A DNA stretch of 39,373 nt from a virus, in IMG/VR virus record IMGVR_UViG_3300021142_000081, positions 1 through 39,373 of that record; one strand, written 5' to 3'. The notes under the pieces were generated by a model. It had not been told where the DNA came from. It saw only the letters and a list, made by a program, of their open reading frames with translations, and did no database searches. Positions 27,864 through 38,879 of the stretch are shown one piece after another. The position numbers were made by a program, and so were the translations under genes. The first letter of the stretch is position 1, and each line of letters opens with the position of its first letter.

Positions 27864-30800
27864 TTAACCTCTCCCTCTTAACCATCTAGGAGTTGACATT
27901 CTTGTACCTTGTTTAAATGTACCAAAAGGAGTTTTTATGCTAGGAGTTTGTGATTCAATTACTTGGAAAAGAGTTGGTTTCTTCTTTGGTGTAGATGTAA
28001 TAGGGTATTTAATATCATAAAATTGAGCTAAAGTGAGGGCACAATACATTGATATAATTCTATCAAAGTTACCATCATGTACACCTCTTCCAGATGTCTT
28101 ACCTTTATATTGAATTAATTCCTGACATAACATTGTGTCTAGTATTCTGGTCAATCCTAATTGATATATCTCCTCCCCCTCTTCTGTAACAATAATATCT
28201 TCAGTATTTACATATTCTACAAGAAGGTTCATTCCATGTTTTTGATTTATAGTGGTGGCAGGAAACCCCATCTTTTTATTACCCCTGTATTTGGGGTTTA
28301 CATGAGTAAGTAAATCTGTTGTATCTGCCAGAAAATGAGATTTTCTTTTATGATAGAAATATTGAAGAAGGGTTCTTTCTGAATCTTCTATAATAACTCC
28401 GTCCACAGCATTATAAAATTCTGCTATCATAAGAGCAAGTTCATGAAATTCCTCAAGAGTAGTAAATCTTCCTGCCCAAGTTGCCACAGGTTGATTTTTA
28501 AACTGATCTAAAGGAGATATCATTCTTTTATAAACTACAATAGATGCCAAAGATACTTCTCCATCATTAGAATCATCATTGTTAATTGGGTCAATACCAA
28601 TGCAATATGTTCCATGTGGAACATTTTCTATAGGATGTTCAAATATACAAAGAGGAGCTTCTTTTTGATCTTTAGGGCCAACTGGGAACTTAATTATTGG
28701 TTTTTTATCAGAAAATGTCCAATTAACCTTACCTTCTGTATTTCTAAACAGGTCTGCATACACAGGATTATATTTTTCCAAAGTAATTTGGTGCATTTTA
28801 AGCCCTGGTACATTAAATTTATTGTTGGATTGAGACAGGAATATTTCCCTAGTAGTTTTAGGAAAATACATTGTGTGTTTAAGAAGAGCTGAAGAATCCT
28901 TGGATTCTTTTAGATTTTCTCTTTCCTTATCAATAAGAGTCTCATTTTCTTTTTTATCTGAAGCTAGTATTTTGACATTTTTTAAATTTGGATGTTTCTT
29001 TTCATCAACTCCTAGATATTCAGCAAATGATTTTTCATGTTTAGGGTAAGCATAAGACATCCACCCTGGAAGAAATAATCCACATTTTCTGGATTCATCA
29101 GGAACCTCACAAGCAAGAAAATTATAAGATTCTGGATTATCAAATAGGGTTTGGAAATCTCTAAAAGAATCCATATCACCACCTGTACCCATTACAAGGA
29201 ATGTTCCCCTCCACCCATTAGGAGTTGTTAAACCTGGAAGACCTGCAAGCAGAGCTTTTAGGAAATTACCTTTACCACCTTCATCTATTACACCTGCTGT
29301 AGGAGTTAAACCTGCAAGAGCTTCCTCATTATCTCCACCATCAAAGTTTCTTATAGCAAAACTACTCCAAGGAATTCTTTGATTTGTTTTAGCATCTTTG
29401 ATACCAAGGGTAACTTGTTTCTTCCAGTTATCTTCTATCTTGGATTTCATAAAGAAATCTGGCAATTCATTTATTCCCAAATCTATCTTATCTGTAATAA
29501 TCTTTATATCTGGTTCATTCAAACCTGAGACAACAACTTGGGAGTTTTTCCAACAAACAGCTTCCCATGCACAAAAAGAGGCTTCCAGCTCACTATTATG
29601 AGTTACTGTAAAGTTATCTGTAAGAAATAGTTTATCTTCATTTGCAACAGTTATACAAGTAGCAAGATTTTTTCTTACTTTTTGAATATTTACTATCCTT
29701 GTTTTGTTTATTTTTGATAAATCTCCTTTAGAAAATTTAAATCTTTCTATTTTTCTAGATAATTTGAATGGAGCAAAATTAATATATAGTTGAAAGTGGT
29801 ATGCATTCTTACATTTTATTCTCCCCCCATTCTTTGTATAGTATGATTCTCTAACAGTCCTTTTTAAATTTATACCCAAACTTCTGCAAAGAAAATAGAA
29901 ATCATCTGCTAATTGCTCAGAGGTCGTAGTGAATGAACAATCTCCTAATTTGGAAATTGTACCATCTGTATCCATAAGACCCTTTAAAAGTTCAATTCTT
30001 TGTTCTATAGAACTATATAGGTATTCTTTCGGAATATGTTTATTATGAATAAGATTTAATTTTCTTAATAGCACTAAAAGAATGTTTTTATCTTTTAATG
30101 TTTTATTATTTCCTCCTTTTATACCAGAAGTAATTCTATAGGTAATTCCATCTTCTTTTACAACCAGATTCAGTGTCTCGGCATAGATTTTTACATAGTC
30201 TATGATTTCATTATCTATAGATGTAATATCAGGACTTTTATTAGATCCATCTCCTAACCATAAACCAAGGAAATAAGGATCTATTTCTAAATCTTTAAAA
30301 GAATATTCAACAGGTGCATTATTAGGTATAGAATATAAATACTCAAAACATTTTTCTCCAGGCTTGTAAGAATTTTTTCTCTCCCTTTTATATTTTGATA
30401 TTAATTCTTTTGTGTTCATAGTGACAAATTTATCACCATGTCTATCTTTTTTACCAGTTTTCTTAGTTTGAAGATACCATAAATGGTCTTCACAGCAATA
30501 AAGTTTTCTTCCATCAAGCAAAGATATCTCATATATATCCTTTTCTCCTTGTGGAAATACTCCAGTAACCTTTGTAGGTTTACCATCAGCCCCAAATATA
30601 AAATCACCTACACATATATCCTCAATATTTATTGTACCATCCTGAGTATATAGTTTACTTCCATGCTCTAAAGCCTTACTAAAACGTCTAGTTCCAGCAG
30701 CAATAACTCCTTTTCTTCTTAAATTACCATTTTCATCCTTAAAATTCTTGGCTTCCCATATTTTATTAGTAAGTATCCACTCAGAATCTCGGAAATCTGG

Positions 30801-31013
30801 TTTTTGCCTAATTCTTCCTTTAGTTATGTGATCTGTAATAATAGTCCAAAGGTTACAGTGCCAATACAAAAAGGGGTTTATAAAAACCCCATCAATTGTT
30901 ATACCCTCTTTACATTTCTTTCTTTCAGCTTTCCAAAACTCATTATATTCATCTGAGTCTTTATCTGGAAGATTCTTTTGATTTATTAATAAATCCTTAC
31001 TTTCAAATATCAT
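27864..31013 (-). CDS. terL: Terminase large subunit (TerL) interrupted by an intein
   Basis: 1049 residues before splicing, 689 after. It is the packaging motor and nuclease. ATPase: Walker A in AAGTRRFSK (105-113) continuing with Ser474 after the intein; Walker B GVIDE with Asp577-Glu578. Nuclease: Asp808 (CIGIDP), Glu876-Asp877 (IIEDSER), and Asp980/Asp984 (HDGNFDR). The intein splits Walker A between Lys113 and Ser474, so an unspliced protein could not bind ATP normally. It starts 9 nt after the small gene before it. Confidence 0.95.
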   Translation of the reverse strand: MIFESKDLLINQKNLPDKDSDEYNEFWKAERKKCKEGITIDGVFINPFLYWHCNLWTIITDHITKGRIRQKPDFRDSEWILTNKIWEAKNFKDENGNLRRKGVIAAGTRRFSKALEHGSKLYTQDGTINIEDICVGDFIFGADGKPTKVTGVFPQGEKDIYEISLLDGRKLYCCEDHLWYLQTKKTGKKDRHGDKFVTMNTKELISKYKRERKNSYKPGEKCFEYLYSIPNNAPVEYSFKDLEIDPYFLGLWLGDGSNKSPDITSIDNEIIDYVKIYAETLNLVVKEDGITYRITSGIKGGNNKTLKDKNILLVLLRKLNLIHNKHIPKEYLYSSIEQRIELLKGLMDTDGTISKLGDCSFTTTSEQLADDFYFLCRSLGINLKRTVRESYYTKNGGRIKCKNAYHFQLYINFAPFKLSRKIERFKFSKGDLSKINKTRIVNIQKVRKNLATCITVANEDKLFLTDNFTVTHNSELEASFCAWEAVCWKNSQVVVSGLNEPDIKIITDKIDLGINELPDFFMKSKIEDNWKKQVTLGIKDAKTNQRIPWSSFAIRNFDGGDNEEALAGLTPTAGVIDEGGKGNFLKALLAGLPGLTTPNGWRGTFLVMGTGGDMDSFRDFQTLFDNPESYNFLACEVPDESRKCGLFLPGWMSYAYPKHEKSFAEYLGVDEKKHPNLKNVKILASDKKENETLIDKERENLKESKDSSALLKHTMYFPKTTREIFLSQSNNKFNVPGLKMHQITLEKYNPVYADLFRNTEGKVNWTFSDKKPIIKFPVGPKDQKEAPLCIFEHPIENVPHGTYCIGIDPINNDDSNDGEVSLASIVVYKRMISPLDQFKNQPVATWAGRFTTLEEFHELALMIAEFYNAVDGVIIEDSERTLLQYFYHKRKSHFLADTTDLLTHVNPKYRGNKKMGFPATTINQKHGMNLLVEYVNTEDIIVTEEGEEIYQLGLTRILDTMLCQELIQYKGKTSGRGVHDGNFDRIISMYCALTLAQFYDIKYPITSTPKKKPTLFQVIESQTPSIKTPFGTFKQGTRMSTPRWLRGRG
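29595..30674 (-). mobile_element. Class 3-type intein with LAGLIDADG endonuclease inside TerL
   Basis: 360 codons, TerL residues 114-473. It begins ALEHGSKLYT, with Ala rather than Cys/Ser, and ends FTVTHN before Ser. The class 3 signature W-C-T is present: Trp66 two residues after the block B His64 (EDHLW), Cys340 in block F (ATCITV) and Thr358 before the terminal His-Asn (THN). The endonuclease domain has the two LAGLIDADG-type helices LGLWLGDGS (136-144) and LLKGLMDTDG (229-238). Boundaries are set by the restored Walker A. Class 3 inteins use the block F Cys as first nucleophile and are thought to be of phage origin. Confidence 0.9.
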
Positions 31014-34732: not shown

Positions 34733-35104
34733 ATGTCTAAAAAACTCACAGCCACTCTGCATGGCTTCTATGTAAAAAATGGCAGAAATGTTTATCGTTA
34801 TCTGGTAAATGGTACTCCTGAAGCAATCCAAGCTTATACTGAAGCTCAAGGAACAAACTTCAGGACTCACCAAGGAGAAGATGATGATAAGCTCAATGGT
34901 ACTCCTCTGTATTTCAGCACAAGACCTGAAGGTAAGTCTGTAGAGCTGGAAATCACACCAAATGGCAAAGTGGTAGTTGCCAAAGATGTCATTCAGGTGA
35001 TGGAGCAACAAATGCTGTTTGATGACAAAGTGCAAACAGAGCTTGCTAAAATAGCAGCTCAGCAGCAAGCCATCAGAATGAAACTGGTAGGCACAAATGC
35101 CTAA
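34733..35104 (+). CDS. Abundant-type small protein of unknown function (123 aa)
   Basis: 123 residues. Beta-rich N-terminal part (LTATLHGFYVKNGRNVYRYL; VELEITPNGKVVVA) and a helical C-terminal end (TELAKIAAQQQAIRMKL). Codon use is visibly richer in G/C than its neighbours (ctg, gcc, ggc), which often marks high expression. The beta core followed by a tail could suit a single-strand DNA-binding fold, but no motif confirms it. First gene of the rightward region; an AAAAACCAATGTGTT leader precedes the ATG. Confidence 0.75.
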   Translation: MSKKLTATLHGFYVKNGRNVYRYLVNGTPEAIQAYTEAQGTNFRTHQGEDDDKLNGTPLYFSTRPEGKSVELEITPNGKVVVAKDVIQVMEQQMLFDDKVQTELAKIAAQQQAIRMKLVGTNA

Positions 35105-35112
35105 ATATCACT

Positions 35113-35136
35113 AGGAGAGGGAGAAATCCCTCTTCT
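35113..35136 (+). ncRNA. 3' hairpin element E0 (AGGAG-GAAA type)
   Basis: AGGAGAGGGA-GAAA-TCCCTCTTCT, fully paired, then TTTTT; 8 nt after the stop of the 34733 gene. Shares AGGAG core and GNAA loop with five more elements; likely terminator and/or RNA 3' end. Confidence 0.7.
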
Positions 35137-35150
35137 TTTTTCATCTCTTT

Positions 35151-35246
35151 GGGAATCAATTGGTTATAAAGTTTGCAAATATCTTTAGAGTAGCACCTTA
35201 TATTGTGTGATGGTAAAAGAATATTGCTCTTAACTAATTGGTTCTC
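35151..35246 (+). ncRNA. Long-range helix element R-A
   Basis: GGGAATCAATTGGTTA (35151-35166) pairs along all 16 positions with TAACTAATTGGTTCTC (35231-35246), enclosing 64 nt. The 5' strand recurs at 36247 and 38599. Confidence 0.65.
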
Positions 35247-35261
35247 TTTTTCTTTCTTTTT

Positions 35262-35369
35262 GGTGCAAACTATTAATTTAGTTGGTCTTTAATACTTTGA
35301 GTATTAAGGGTTTAGGATACTTCACTTAAACTAGTGATTTAATTGCTCAAACCAAATAAACAAATTGTT
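35262..35369 (+). promoter_or_regulatory. Multi-hairpin leader element L-1
   Basis: GGTGCAAA, hairpin AACTA/TAGTT, TTGGT, hairpin CTTTAATACT/AGTATTAAGG, GTTTAGGAT, hairpin CACT/AGTG, then AAACCAAATAAA and the ATG at 35370. The same order occurs before the 37207 gene, with different stem sequences. Confidence 0.6.
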
Positions 35370-35804
35370 ATGAAAAGTATTATTAAGTTCTTATTTCCCA
35401 AGTTCTACAAAGAGATTATGAATGAAGGAGTTGAATGGTATCTTAATCAAGCAGATAACTCTGATTATTTAAGACCTGATCCAGATGAAGAATATCTTGA
35501 TGAGTTTGATGAAGAGGCTTGGAATAAGAAATGTGAAGAAGACAGAATTGCTTGGGAACAAGAGCAATCTGATGCTGAAGCAGAACTGGCTTATTTACAA
35601 TCTCTTGAGAATCAATCACTCCCTTGTAAAATAGGGGATTTCATCCATATCAAACCTAGAAATGGTATATATGAGGTGATTGAAGCTACTCCTGATTATT
35701 TCACTATCACCTGCAAGAGATGGCAACAGGAATATGAAAGAAAAGAAAGATCCTACAGAAAATCTACATACACTTGGGACAACTTCAAATGTCTCAAAGG
35801 ATAA
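35370..35804 (+). CDS. Acidic hypothetical protein (144 aa)
   Basis: 144 residues from the ATG at 35370 (MKSIIKFLFPKFY), chosen over an ATG at 35343 because AAACCAAATAAA lies just before it, as with other genes here. Short basic/hydrophobic N-terminus, a very acidic middle (about 31-75, DPDEEYLDEFDEEAW), then a beta-rich C-terminal domain (KIGDFIHIKPRNGIYEVIEA; YFTITCKRW). The C-terminal part looks like a small SH3-like barrel. Function unknown. Confidence 0.7.
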   Translation: MKSIIKFLFPKFYKEIMNEGVEWYLNQADNSDYLRPDPDEEYLDEFDEEAWNKKCEEDRIAWEQEQSDAEAELAYLQSLENQSLPCKIGDFIHIKPRNGIYEVIEATPDYFTITCKRWQQEYERKERSYRKSTYTWDNFKCLKG

Positions 35805-35817
35805 CATCTCTTTATAA

Positions 35818-35856
35818 GGTTTCAGGAGAGCTATAGAAATATAGCCTCTTGAGATC
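35818..35856 (+). ncRNA. 3' hairpin element E1
   Basis: GGTTTCA pairs with TGAGATC, AGGAG core with CTCT, bulged A, then GCTATA-GAAA-TATAGC; seven T follow. It starts 14 nt after the stop of the upstream gene. Confidence 0.75.
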
Positions 35857-35932
35857 TTTTTTATCCACTTAAGCTGTAGCATTCAATTGCAAATAATCAC
35901 TAAACATTTTTTAAACTCTAAATAAAACTAAC

Positions 35933-36187
35933 ATGAGACTATTCATTGATAATCACTACTTTATAAGTGTGATAGAAGAAAAAAGAGGATATAATTGTCA
36001 AATTATGGAACTAATACATGGTATAGGAATGTATCCAGCAACAATAACAGATAATCAATCAGATGTTGTTTCTGGTATTGTTCATGGGATATTTAAAGAA
36101 GAATCTAAAATCTGTAAAGATTTAAAGGAACTTTTTGAATACCATAAAGATTGTGTTGTAGAAATGATAACTGAAGGTATTTGTTAA
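35933..36187 (+). CDS. Hypothetical protein (84 aa)
   Basis: 84 residues. Mixed beta/helix (FIDNHYFISVIEEKRGYNCQ), ending in a helical acidic part (KDLKELFEYHKDCVVEMI). No family recognised. The start is supported by the leader AAATAAAACTAAC, and hairpin E2 follows 12 nt after the stop. Confidence 0.65.
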   Translation: MRLFIDNHYFISVIEEKRGYNCQIMELIHGIGMYPATITDNQSDVVSGIVHGIFKEESKICKDLKELFEYHKDCVVEMITEGIC

Positions 36188-36199
36188 ACTTCTAATTTG

Positions 36200-36235
36200 G
36201 GTTTCACTGGAGATAGCAATATCTTTGGTGAAATC
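36200..36235 (+). ncRNA. 3' hairpin element E2
   Basis: GGTTTCACTGGAGATA-GCAA-TATCTTTGGTGAAATC, paired throughout (several G-U), 12 nt after a stop codon. GGAG and GNAA loop as in the other E elements; T run short. Confidence 0.7.
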
Positions 36236-36246
36236 TTTATCTTATT

Positions 36247-36398
36247 GGGAATCAATTGATTATATAAGATTAGCTTTAAATAGCTAACCATTTTATTGTG
36301 TCCTGCTACTCCTAACAATGAGAAGCAATAACATAGAATAGATGAGGTTGTCAGCCTTTTTTCTATTACCATGCAGGATATATAATCTTTTGATTTCC
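36247..36398 (+). ncRNA. Long-range helix element R-B
   Basis: GGGAATCAATTGATTA (36247-36262) pairs with TAATCTTTTGATTTCC (36383-36398) as 9+5 bp around a TT/TT internal loop. Inside are TTAGCT/AGCTAA, TCCTGC/GCAGGA and ATAGAA/TTCTAT helices. Confidence 0.6.
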
Positions 36399-36427
36399 TT
36401 ATTATTAAACCAATTAAACCAAACAAT

Positions 36428-36613
36428 ATGCTAACATATAAAATACAACAAAAAGTAGGTGAAAATTACATAACCTTAAAAGATCATCAAGGATATGATA
36501 TGGAAGCCATTACACTAAGTAATGCTTGGTATATTATATATCTTTTCAGAATGAGGGAACAAACTGCTGTAGAATGCAGAATAGTAACCTCTAAAGGAGA
36601 ATATATATACTAA
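36428..36613 (+). CDS. Small hypothetical protein (61 aa)
   Basis: 61 residues, beta-rich (MLTYKIQQKVGENYITLKD ... AVECRIVTSKGEYIY). Leader AAACCAATTAAACCAAACAAT precedes the ATG; hairpin E3 begins 6 nt after the stop. Unknown family. Confidence 0.6.
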   Translation: MLTYKIQQKVGENYITLKDHQGYDMEAITLSNAWYIIYLFRMREQTAVECRIVTSKGEYIY

Positions 36614-36619
36614 TCTCTT

Positions 36620-36660
36620 TTTAGATCAGGAGTGAGAAGAAATTCTCCTCTTGATCTAAA
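36620..36660 (+). ncRNA. 3' hairpin element E3
   Basis: TTTAGATCAGGAG, bulged T, GAGAA-GAAA-TTCTC, CTCTTGATCTAAA; 14-bp outer helix. Starts 6 nt after the stop of the 61-residue gene. Confidence 0.75.
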
Positions 36661-37103
36661 TTTTAACATTTGTTTTATTGGGTTTCAGAAGATTGAGCCT
36701 AAAAATTAATTAGTTGATTATCAATTGATTACTTAAAAATAAATTGTTTTTCTCCTAGAGGAATATTTAATAAAAATCTTCAGTGAATTATTTATAATAT
36801 GTTAATAGATTTAGCATATTTCTATTCATTTAAATGATTTTTATTTTAATTATTCTGCATCAATGTATGAATAAAAGTATTTTATTGAGTTTTAAAGGCT
36901 TTCATTTAGTGACAAAATGTCAGTTGACTATGCCATAACTGCATATTTAATGACAAGTTGACATAAAAATGTGACAAAATGTCTTTATTTTAGAACCAAC
37001 AGCCATATTTTCTCAATGAAGTGTTTAAATTTCTTCAAAATTTCTTCATTTTCTCTCATTTCTTATACAATACATTATATAAAGGAAACATTTTAAAACC
37101 AAT
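36661..37103 (+). other. AT-rich gene-free stretch with repeated GTGACAAAATGTC
   Basis: About 440 nt without a convincing gene. It holds two exact copies of the 13-mer GTGACAAAATGTC (36909-36921 and 36971-36983), each with an inner GACA/TGTC inverted repeat, and extra TTGAC half-sites between them. Operator-like; the gene downstream starts at 37207. Confidence 0.45.
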
Positions 37104-37206
37104 GGTGCAAAAGGATAATCCCTTTGGTCTATTCTTTAATAGAATAGGTTTAGAATTGCTTGAATATTTTCAAGTACATAGCTGAAACCAAATAAAATTT
37201 AACAAC
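37104..37206 (+). promoter_or_regulatory. Multi-hairpin leader element L-2
   Basis: GGTGCAAA, hairpin AAAGG/CCTTT, TTGGT, hairpin CTATTC/GAATAG, GTTTAGAAT, hairpin CTTGA/TCAAG, then GAAACCAAATAAA and ATG. The conserved box ends 50 nt before the ATG, versus 51 nt in L-1. Confidence 0.6.
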
Positions 37207-37422
37207 ATGTTCATAGTATTAGTACAACAAACAGAAGGAAAAGGATTTGCTTCTAATCATGGATTCACATCTGATTATTTAGCAGAAAGAGCTAAATCCA
37301 CTTTTAATACATTAGAAAATGCTGCAAAAGCTGCTAACGAATTAGCTAAAAGATATCATGGAACTACATTTCAAGTATTTGAGTATATAGAAGCTTATAA
37401 AGCTAATATAGAAAAAGTCTAA
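37207..37422 (+). CDS. Small hypothetical protein (71 aa)
   Basis: 71 residues: N-terminal strand (MFIVLVQQT), flexible Gly/Ser loop, then helices (TFNTLENAAKAANELAKRY) and a last strand (TTFQVFEY). Compact alpha/beta fold likely; no family known to me. It shares its leader type (L) with the 35370 gene, hinting at joint control. Confidence 0.65.
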   Translation: MFIVLVQQTEGKGFASNHGFTSDYLAERAKSTFNTLENAAKAANELAKRYHGTTFQVFEYIEAYKANIEKV

Positions 37423-37432
37423 GCTTCTAAAT

Positions 37433-37466
37433 GGTTTACTGGAGATAGAAATGTCTCTGGTAAACC
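37433..37466 (+). ncRNA. 3' hairpin element E4
   Basis: GGTTTACTGGAGATA-GAAA-TGTCTCTGGTAAACC, continuous pairing, 10 nt after the stop. T run weak (TTATTTC). Confidence 0.7.
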
Positions 37467-37477
37467 TTATTTCTTTG

Positions 37478-37586
37478 GAACTAATAGATATTGGTGGATA
37501 AAAACTAGAATAAGCTCCTTAAAACTAAACTTTTACTAGTTACCTCACATGATAAAAATGGACAGTATCTATTAGTTCTTTTTTCT
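37478..37586 (+). ncRNA. Structured RNA with terminator (R-D)
   Basis: GAACTAATAGATA (37478-37490) pairs perfectly with TATCTATTAGTTC (37566-37578), 13 bp, followed by TTTTTT. Inside, AACTAG pairs with CTAGTT. CTTTG before it resembles the other R elements. Confidence 0.6.
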
Positions 37587-37615
37587 TATCATTTTAGAAT
37601 ATTTCTAAGAATGTA

Positions 37616-37730
37616 GTCTTCGATGACAAATAAGACCAATTTAGAGAGGAAACTTCTCGTGGTAGAAACATTGGTATAATAGTTAAGTCTATAGATACCG
37701 ATAAAGTATATCAGTTAGTGTAGTGACTAG
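37616..37730 (+). ncRNA. Further structured RNA-like stretch
   Basis: Helices GTCTT/AAGAC (37616-37636), ACCAAT/ATTGGT (37635-37675, enclosing GAGA/TCTC), GATA/TATC (37700-37712) and TTAGT/ACTAG (37715-37730). The first two exclude each other, which would allow a switch. No open frame. Confidence 0.35.
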
Positions 37731-37858
37731 CAAGAGAGTTTATAAATATTAGAAAACAAAAGAAATGAATAGCACTAAACATTCAAAGTATTTTATCTGA
37801 TAGAGAAGAATTTCCTCCATTTAATAAAATTTTAAATAACCAAATAAAAACAATAAAA

Positions 37859-38188
37859 ATGAAAAACATACAAATTAAACCTTACGATCTAGTTCCTAAA
37901 GAAATAAGAATACAGGTGTATAAGGAAGCTATTAAAAGAATAAAAACTAATACTCATAATCAATTAGGAATAGGAATTTGTCTAGTTATTCCTTGTATAT
38001 TATGGGGATTAGAATTTTTTTTAGATCCTGCTCCTAATGGTGATTATTGGACATTTAAAATAACTCAAGAAATGTTTCCTGAAATTACTGATGAAGTAAT
38101 AGACAGAATCAAAGAAGTAGATTCTGAAAAGAATCAAAATCGAATGAGAATAAAAGTTCTTGAGGAAATAGTTAAAGAATTGGAGTAA
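37859..38188 (+). CDS. Hypothetical protein (109 aa)
   Basis: 109 residues, helical N-terminus (EIRIQVYKEAIKRIK), a hydrophobic stretch near 36-55 (LGIGICLVIPCILWGLEFFL) that may be a buried helix or a membrane segment, and a charged coiled C-terminus (NRMRIKVLEEIVKELE). AACCAAATAAAAACAAT leader; hairpin E5 follows. Unknown family. Confidence 0.65.
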   Translation: MKNIQIKPYDLVPKEIRIQVYKEAIKRIKTNTHNQLGIGICLVIPCILWGLEFFLDPAPNGDYWTFKITQEMFPEITDEVIDRIKEVDSEKNQNRMRIKVLEEIVKELE

Positions 38189-38200
38189 TCTCTTTTATTT

Positions 38201-38235
38201 GGGTTCAGGAGTCCTAGAAATAGGCTCTTGAACTC
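38201..38235 (+). ncRNA. 3' hairpin element E5
   Basis: GGGTTCAGGAG, bulged T, CCTA-GAAA-TAGG, CTCTTGAACTC, then TTTTT; 12 nt after the stop of the 109-residue gene. Confidence 0.75.
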
Positions 38236-38415: not shown

Positions 38416-38592
38416 ATGTCAAAACCATTTTTTACAACAGTAAAAGCTACTTCTTCTACAACAACAATAAGGAAAGATAGAAGTACACAATCATTCAGAG
38501 GTGCTAATAATGGCAGGATTATTAATCCTGATCAATACAGACCTTCTAAAGAACCTGCATATATGACAAATAATTATGGAGGTAATTTTTAA
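38416..38592 (+). CDS. Micro-protein (58 aa), Ser/Thr/Asn-rich
   Basis: 58 codons with a TTTAAAACCAATACATT leader. Thr/Ser-rich N-terminus (TTVKATSSTTTIRKDRSTQS) and a Gly/Asn/Tyr-rich tail, likely disordered. The leader and the long R-C helix directly after its stop support it. Function unknown. Confidence 0.5.
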   Translation: MSKPFFTTVKATSSTTTIRKDRSTQSFRGANNGRIINPDQYRPSKEPAYMTNNYGGNF

Positions 38593-38598
38593 ATCTTT

Positions 38599-38655
38599 GA
38601 GAATCAATTAATTAAGCACAACATTGATAAAGTTGGAGGTGATTAGTTGATTCTC
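38599..38655 (+). ncRNA. Long-range helix element R-C
   Basis: GAGAATCAATTAATTA (38599-38614) pairs over 16 positions with TGATTAGTTGATTCTC (38640-38655), loop of 25 nt, then TTTCTT. Third copy of the helix, with compensatory changes. Confidence 0.65.
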
Positions 38656-38678
38656 TTTCTTATTCTGCGCAGATAAAA

Positions 38679-38772: not shown

Positions 38773-38846
38773 GGAGGTATAGTTTAAAGGAAAAACCTTG
38801 GATTTCTAATCCAAAGACATCTAGAGTTCAAATCTCAGTGCCTCCT
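38773..38846 (+). tRNA. tRNA-Arg (anticodon TCT)
   Basis: Acceptor GGAGGTA pairs with TGCCTCC; D arm GTTT/AAAC; anticodon stem TTGGA/TCCAA around TT-TCT-AA; T loop TTCAAAT with a stem that has one mismatch. It reads AGA, the favoured Arg codon in this AT-rich genome. No CCA in the gene. Confidence 0.88.
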
Positions 38847-38879
38847 CTATTTTTAAAAACATTTTAAACCCTAAATAAT

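What the first reader, a model, noticed from the sequence alone, without database searches (positions are those of the whole stretch)
35113..38235. Six 3' hairpins with an invariant AGGAG core and GNAA loop after consecutive genes
Elements E0-E5 start 7-14 nt after the stop codons at 35104, 35804, 36187, 36613, 37422 and 38188. Outer stems differ in sequence but keep pairing, while the AGGAG core and the GNAA loop stay the same; three copies also share a bulged base. A plain terminator would not need a conserved core, and the T run is poor in E2 and E4. I suggest a recognised 3' end, processing or stability element.
Basis: partly seen in the sequence, partly recalled or inferred. Interest (0 to 1): 0.8.

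Follow-up and report, generated by a model that had tools for sequence, protein, structure and literature searches.

The report
Conserved GGAG hairpins after phage genes
Six small RNA hairpins sit just behind six neighbouring early genes of a crAss-like phage, all carrying the same GGAG sequence while the rest of each stem changes, and relatives of this hairpin turn up behind genes of quite unrelated phages, which points to an undescribed RNA signal at mRNA ends and gene junctions.

Summary
Exactly six such hairpins lie in the window, all on the + strand, 6-12 nt behind six consecutive stop codons (0.05 expected in shuffles). Corrections: the invariant piece is GGAG, not AGGAG (E2 and E4 have UGGAG); the T tract is poor in E2, E3 and E4.

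Comparison takes it further. E4 is identical over 43 nt in a related phage (MCP 70% identical), beside an unrelated gene. That phage and three more crAss-like relatives carry, 2-11 nt behind a stop of the early strand, a sister form: a freely varying stem capped by GGAGAUARYWUCAAA. Across IMG/VR, 13 of 120 exact matches to the strict cap have five or more flanking pairs (1.0 expected); 11 of 21 noncoding matches do, against 2 of 99 coding ones. Rfam has no match. The cap occurs with T tracts (crAss-like phages, Patescibacteria) and without (SAR11-type and Firmicutes-type phages).

Most likely this is a 3'-end/intercistronic mRNA element with a sequence-specific cap, combined here with weak terminator function. 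Termination, processing and any recognising factor are inferred. Plain terminators are the main rival. The link between the window's GNAA form and the widespread cap is inference.

The parts
35113..35136 (+). E0: AGGAGAGGGA-GAAA-TCCCTCTTCT + TTTTTT, 8 nt after stop at 35104; weakest member
35816..35858 (+). E1 (class A): outer stem, CAGGAG, bulged A, 6 bp, GAAA, CTCTTG; 11 nt after stop at 35804
36199..36236 (+). E2 (class B): ACTGGAGATA-GCAA-TATCTTTGGT, 17 bp, no bulge; 11 nt after stop at 36187; poor T tract
36620..36660 (+). E3 (class A): CAGGAG, bulged T, 5 bp, GAAA, CTCTTG; 6 nt after stop at 36613; poor T tract
37433..37466 (+). E4 (class B): ACTGGAGATA-GAAA-TGTCTCTGGT; 10 nt after stop at 37422; 43 nt (37425-37467) identical in relative G003
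38201..38235 (+). E5 (class A): CAGGAG, bulged T, 4 bp, GAAA, CTCTTG; 12 nt after stop at 38188; next ATG only 24 nt downstream
34733..38188 (+). the six short early-strand genes of unknown function whose stops precede E0-E5 (34733-35104, 35370-35804, 35933-36187, 36428-36613, 37207-37422, 37859-38188)
35151..35247 (+). F1: long-helix element directly behind E0, GGGAATCAATTGGTTA...TAACTAATTGGTTCTC
36247..36402 (+). F2: long-helix element directly behind E2
37477..37578 (+). F4: long-helix element directly behind E4
38599..38656 (+). F5: long-helix element 6 nt behind the stop at 38592, no E hairpin before it

Best explanation
The six hairpins are 3'-end/intercistronic mRNA elements of the early transcription unit. 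Shown by sequence: each forms immediately behind a stop codon in sense RNA; stems are free to change as long as they pair; the GGAG strand near the tip is fixed; the same position and GGAG strand recur in related phages, and a stricter cap (GGAGAUARYWUCAAA, predicted as a 3x3 GGA/AAA internal loop, a GAU/AUC helix and a triloop) recurs at gene junctions of unrelated phages. Inferred: the hairpin ends or marks the 3' end of each early message, as a weak terminator where a T tract follows and otherwise as a cleavage-resistant or processed junction that blocks 3' exonucleases, and the GGAG strand or cap is what a protein (phage or host RNase, RNA-binding protein or RNA polymerase) recognises. The window's GNAA form is read as a derived version in which the mismatched GGA/AAA tip became paired.
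For: Six of six behind consecutive early-strand stops, none elsewhere, 0.05 expected. Compensatory changes in the stems with fixed GGAG. E4 identical in G003 behind an unrelated gene. Sister cap behind early-strand stops in G003 (65260), G002 (67279), G010 (90685) and L266. Unbiased test: 13 of 120 exact cap matches have 5 or more flanking pairs against 1.0 expected (p 6e-11), noncoding 11/21 against coding 2/99 (p 2e-8). Cap placed 6-12 nt after a stop in L200, L217, L223, L266, L312, L313, L393. Two related phages (L200, L313) keep it behind the same SSB-like gene with changed stems. T tracts are not universal: none in L217, L223, L393 or L276, so the cap is not simply part of a terminator.
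Against: No RNA data. T tracts follow most copies in crAss-like phages, so ordinary termination would explain their placement without any cap function. E5 and the G003 copy of E4 lie only 24 and 31 nt before the next ATG, awkward for a strong terminator but also leaving little room for separate messages. No candidate recognising protein was found. The kinship of the GNAA form with the GGAGAUARYWUCAAA cap rests on a shared 7-nt strand, shared position and their coexistence in G003, not on an intermediate.
Confidence: 0.45

Rival explanations
1. They are ordinary intrinsic terminators. The shared core is inherited from recent copying of one terminator between neighbouring genes, and the cap motif is merely a favourable hairpin tip.
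For: Placement right after stops; T tracts of 5-7 in E0, E1, E5 and most relatives; Patescibacteria copies are textbook T-tract terminators; the simple scan lists E0, E2 and E4 as terminator-like.
Against: Weak T tracts in E2, E3, E4 while conventional terminators of the same phage group mostly have a G+C-rich stem base and runs of 5-7 T. Stems have diverged completely while GGAG has not. The same cap sits between close gene pairs without any T tract in other phages.
Confidence: 0.27
2. Mobile regulatory cassettes, like the PeSL elements of T4-type phages: hairpin units moved between early genes by recombination, promoting gene shuffling.
For: 43-nt identity of E4 in two phages beside non-homologous genes; flanking genes are short orphans that are not shared between relatives.
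Against: Only one such recent transfer is seen; no common promoter motif was found downstream of the hairpins; stems covary, which sequence mobility does not require. Not exclusive with the main reading.
Confidence: 0.12
3. Operator or cleavage site: the GGAG strand is the target of a dedicated factor, e.g. a T4 RegB-like endoribonuclease that cuts GGAG in early messages, or a translational or antitermination regulator (lambda nut-like, with a UCUCUUU box before E1, E3, E5 and GNRA-type loops).
For: GGAG fixed while its partner strand changes between UCU, UUU and AAA; UCUCUUU follows the stop in all three class A copies.
Against: No RegB match in 11 records (its control was silent, so weak). 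In the E forms GGAG is base-paired, unlike RegB targets as known. The UCUCUUU box is missing before E0, E2, E4 and before the cap hairpins of the relatives.
Confidence: 0.12
4. DNA hairpins used as promoters by the virion RNA polymerase, as in phage N4.
For: The early region of crAss-like phages is thought to be transcribed by a virion polymerase (PMC10136315, PMC8375218).
Against: Distance to the next start varies from 24 to 546 nt while distance to the preceding stop is constant at 6-12 nt; sense-strand GNRA loops and G-U pairs fit RNA better.
Confidence: 0.03

Closest known systems
Intrinsic (Rho-independent) terminators
   Same: hairpin right behind a stop, T-rich tail in many copies
   Different: conserved GGAG strand or 15-nt cap; weak or missing T tract in many copies; A/T-rich stem base
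PeSL elements of T4-type phages (Arbiol 2010, Comeau 2014, known here through the citing paper PMC4503421)
   Same: repeated stem-loops between short, shuffling early genes; one copy shared between phages beside different genes
   Different: no promoter motif identified next to the hairpin; the conserved part is an RNA tip
T7 early-region RNase III sites and lambda sib (from own knowledge)
   Same: hairpins between early genes or behind a gene that set message ends and stability
   Different: those are recognised as long duplexes, without a fixed GGAG strand; no processing shown here
T4 RegB targets (own knowledge)
   Same: GGAG in early phage messages
   Different: GGAG is paired in the E forms; no RegB gene found
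L17 downstream element (Weinberg 2010, PMC2864571)
   Same: conserved structured RNA in a 3' untranslated region, called highly unusual in bacteria
   Different: ribosomal-protein context in Lactobacillales and Listeria; no Rfam match here

Membership tests
Intrinsic terminator | stem-loop followed at once by a run of about 5 or more U | tested here: inconclusive
   longest T run 6, 6, 3, 4, 3, 5 in E0-E5; 5-7 in relatives
Intrinsic terminator | G+C-rich stem base next to the U tract | tested here: not met
   E1-E5 stem bases are aagg/tctt, gggt/atct, ttta/taaa, ggtt/aacc, gggt/actc; most conventional terminators of the relatives have CCCC/GGGG-type bases
Intrinsic terminator | transcription ends there | not testable with these tools
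   no RNA data
Any Rfam 15 family | match to a covariance model | tested here: not met
   only a tRNA in the window; no credible match at the cap loci
T4-type PeSL | stem-loop shared between genomes beside different early genes | tested here: met
   E4 identical in G003 beside a non-homologous gene
T4-type PeSL | early promoter joined to the stem-loop | tested here: inconclusive
   only an A-rich leader upstream of starts; no shared promoter motif
Lambda nut site | boxA followed by a boxB hairpin | tested here: not met
   boxA-like UCUCUUU only before E1, E3, E5; absent before E0, E2, E4 and before the cap hairpins of relatives
T4 RegB target | RegB nuclease present | tested here: inconclusive
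   PF10715 silent in 11 records, and in the controls
N4 virion-polymerase promoter hairpin | fixed distance to the downstream transcript | tested here: inconclusive
   transcription starts unknown; distance to the next ATG runs from 24 to 546 nt
GGAGAUARYWUCAAA cap family (defined here) | 15-nt cap in a variable paired stem at a gene junction, in related and unrelated phages | tested here: met
   G002, G003, G010, L266 and unrelated phages
GGAGAUARYWUCAAA cap family (defined here) | window copies match the cap model R2 | tested here: not met
   no window hit with R2; E2 and E4 share only GGAGAUA and the position, E0, E1, E3, E5 only GGAG

The most novel reading that the evidence does not exclude
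GGAGAUARYWUCAAA-capped hairpins are an undescribed RNA signal used by unrelated phages, and a few Patescibacteria, at message ends and gene junctions, read by a conserved factor; the window's six hairpins are a local expansion of a derived form that serves the early genes of a crAss-like phage.
Probability: 0.3. Interest if true: 0.8.

Novelty: new variant of a known kind. Interest (0 to 1): 0.6.

Why it matters
Little is known of how crAss-like phages end and process their early messages, which a virion RNA polymerase is thought to make. A fixed RNA tip behind six consecutive genes gives a concrete handle for that. If the cap seen in unrelated phages is the same signal, it is an RNA motif missing from Rfam that several phage lineages use at gene ends, and the factor that reads it should be findable.

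Tried and rejected
Rfam, gathering and relaxed: nothing but a tRNA. TROVE/Y-RNA idea, from the TROVE gene in crAss001: no TROVE gene in seven records. Class A pattern in IMG/VR: 44 hits, about the number I estimated for chance, only four with a full inner stem and none with the window's bulge. CM from E2+E4 (R1): finds E1 weakly and the G003 copy strongly; other relatives at noise level; the G010 hit at 108353 is coding. DAC15 and phi14:2 cap hits are coding or unstemmed. Seven cap matches in Firmicutes genomes and one isolate-derived phage contig (L323, L340, L342, L363, L365, L366, L392) share one flanking sequence that reads as the end of a conserved reading frame and were set aside. Two of the 13 stemmed phage matches (L255, L262) are coding; L226 and L296 are doubtful. 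A shared promoter motif downstream of the hairpins was not found. Text search for the cap letters in papers: none. Search of 198 Bacteroidota genomes: one match, coding-like, in the genome used as centre.

Full report
What was claimed and what is there. They are there. A structural descriptor finds exactly these six in 39,373 bases, all on the + strand, against 0.05 per dinucleotide shuffle. They begin 6-12 nt behind six stop codons. Two sub-types exist. Class A (E1, E3, E5): UCAGGAG, one bulged base, 4-6 bp, GAAA, CUCUUGA. Class B (E2, E4): ACUGGAGAUA-GNAA-URUCUYUGGU without bulge. E0 is short and fits least well. The invariant part is GGAG, with C-G outside it in five copies and A-U closing a GNAA loop in all six. 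The stems outside and inside differ by changes on both sides that keep pairing, so this is not just recent duplication. T tracts are weak in E2, E3 and E4.

Where it lies. The window is an IMG/VR phage fragment of a divergent crAss-like phage: its TerL, portal and MCP match Crassvirales records or phage head-protein profiles, and a ring protein matches PF25702. The hairpins lie on the strand running away from the structural genes, in short orphan genes; by analogy with crAss001 and phi14:2 this is the early region (PMC8375218, PMC10136315). That is inference for this phage.

Relatives. Four related records were found: G003 (MCP 70%), G002 and G001 (50%), G010 (45%). E4 with its flanks is identical over 43 nt in G003, behind a different gene. 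At portal identities near 60% this means recent exchange or exceptional constraint. In G003, G002 and G010 the early strand also carries, 3-9 nt behind a stop, a sister hairpin: AGTTTAGCC-GGAGATAGTATCAAA-GGCTAAACT, TTGAGTTTTAGG-GGAGATAATATCAAA-CCTAAACTCAA and GGTTCAGA-GGAGATAACTTCAAA-TCTGAACC. A further crAss-like contig, L266 (portal about 30%), has it within 11 nt behind a stop. The 5' strand GGAGAUA is that of E2 and E4; the partner of GGA is AAA here, UUU in E2, UCU in E4 and class A.

Beyond crAss-like phages. A scan of IMG/VR for GGAGATARTATCAAA (stopped at 120 matches) gave 13 with five or more perfectly flanking pairs where 1.0 is expected. Noncoding matches split 11 with stem to 10 without, coding matches 2 to 97. 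The noncoding ones mostly sit 6-12 nt behind a stop and often 13-24 nt before the next start: L217 behind a capsid gene related to those of Firmicutes phages, L223 in a phage related to Pelagibacter phages, L200 and L313 behind an SSB-like gene, L312, L393. L276 and L389 have it directly before homing-endonuclease-like genes (identified by reading the translations). A genome scan added Patescibacteria copies that are T-tract terminators right behind genes. Among 198 Bacteroidota genomes the only hit was coding-like, in the genome used as centre, so this does not look like a host feature. Most members with T tracts come from crAss-like phages and Patescibacteria; L217, L223, L393 and L276 have none. 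The cap therefore is not simply part of a terminator. The fold is predicted as stem, 3x3 GGA/AAA loop, GAU/AUC, triloop. In an 18-member alignment the stem covaries strongly, but members were chosen for pairing, so the unbiased evidence is, not or 134.

Reading. Constant distance to the preceding stop and variable distance to the next start (24-546 nt) tie the hairpins to the end of the upstream gene. T tracts behind most copies in this phage group allow terminator function. The fixed GGAG strand, independent of its partner and of the stem, calls for recognition. I therefore favour a 3'-end/intercistronic element with a sequence-specific tip, acting as weak terminator and exonuclease barrier or processing junction. 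Shown: position, structure potential, covariation, recurrence. Inferred: termination, processing, recognition, and the kinship of the GNAA form with the widespread cap (R2 does not find the window copies).

Limits. No RNA data; scans used exact cap letters and were capped; several member contigs are unplaced fragments; L312 and L388 are near-identical copies; the original papers on PeSL elements could not be read.

Noticed in passing
window 35151-35247, 36247-36402, 37477-37578, 38599-38656; G003 67121-67205; G010 90176-90210 and 93552-93620: A second family of structured elements: a long closing helix (about GRGAATCAATTRRTTA paired with TAAYYAATTGATTCTC in the window) around an interior of very different length and sequence, T-rich after it. 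Three follow E0, E2 and E4; F5 and the G003 copy follow a stop directly. G010 seems to have its own version with another arm sequence (AGAATAGATTG...TTTCTATTCT).
   Followed up: partly
window 36737-36769; G002 67382-67414: A 33-nt noncoding stretch (AAATAAATTGTTTTTCTCCTAGAGGAATATTTA) is 94% identical to G002 although the capsid proteins are only 50% identical; it lies in the 546-nt gap behind E3.
   Followed up: no
window 27867-31013 (residues about 114-474): The large terminase carries an intein-like insert (Hint and LAGLIDADG domains); G003 lacks it in TerL but has a similar insert in a PhoH-like gene at 61926-63695.
   Followed up: partly
window 35807, 36614, 38189 (also 35144, 35243, 38652): UCUCUUU follows the stop in all three class A copies and is complementary to the AGGAG core, so it could compete with the 3' arm, or resemble a boxA.
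   Followed up: partly
L026 6623-6677 and 11514-11541 (G002 66623-66677, 71514-71541): Two G002 hairpins share TATCCTC...TATA-GTAA-TATA...GG(A/G)GG with different stem lengths: this relative may have its own set of alike 3' hairpins.
   Followed up: no
L276 3380-3410 (-), L389 12966-12984 (-): The GGAG-capped hairpin stands directly before the start codon of genes that read as homing endonucleases (GIY-YIG-like and LAGLIDADG-like), in L276 next to a T4-late-promoter-like TATAAATA.
   Followed up: no
L340, L342, L363, L365, L366, L323, L392: In Firmicutes genomes and a phage contig the same 15 letters sit at the stop codon of a conserved reading frame that ends in about HG(V/A)K(W/R)GK.RR, with short flanking pairs.
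   Followed up: no
window 38773-38847: tRNA-Arg (TCT) among the early genes.
   Followed up: no
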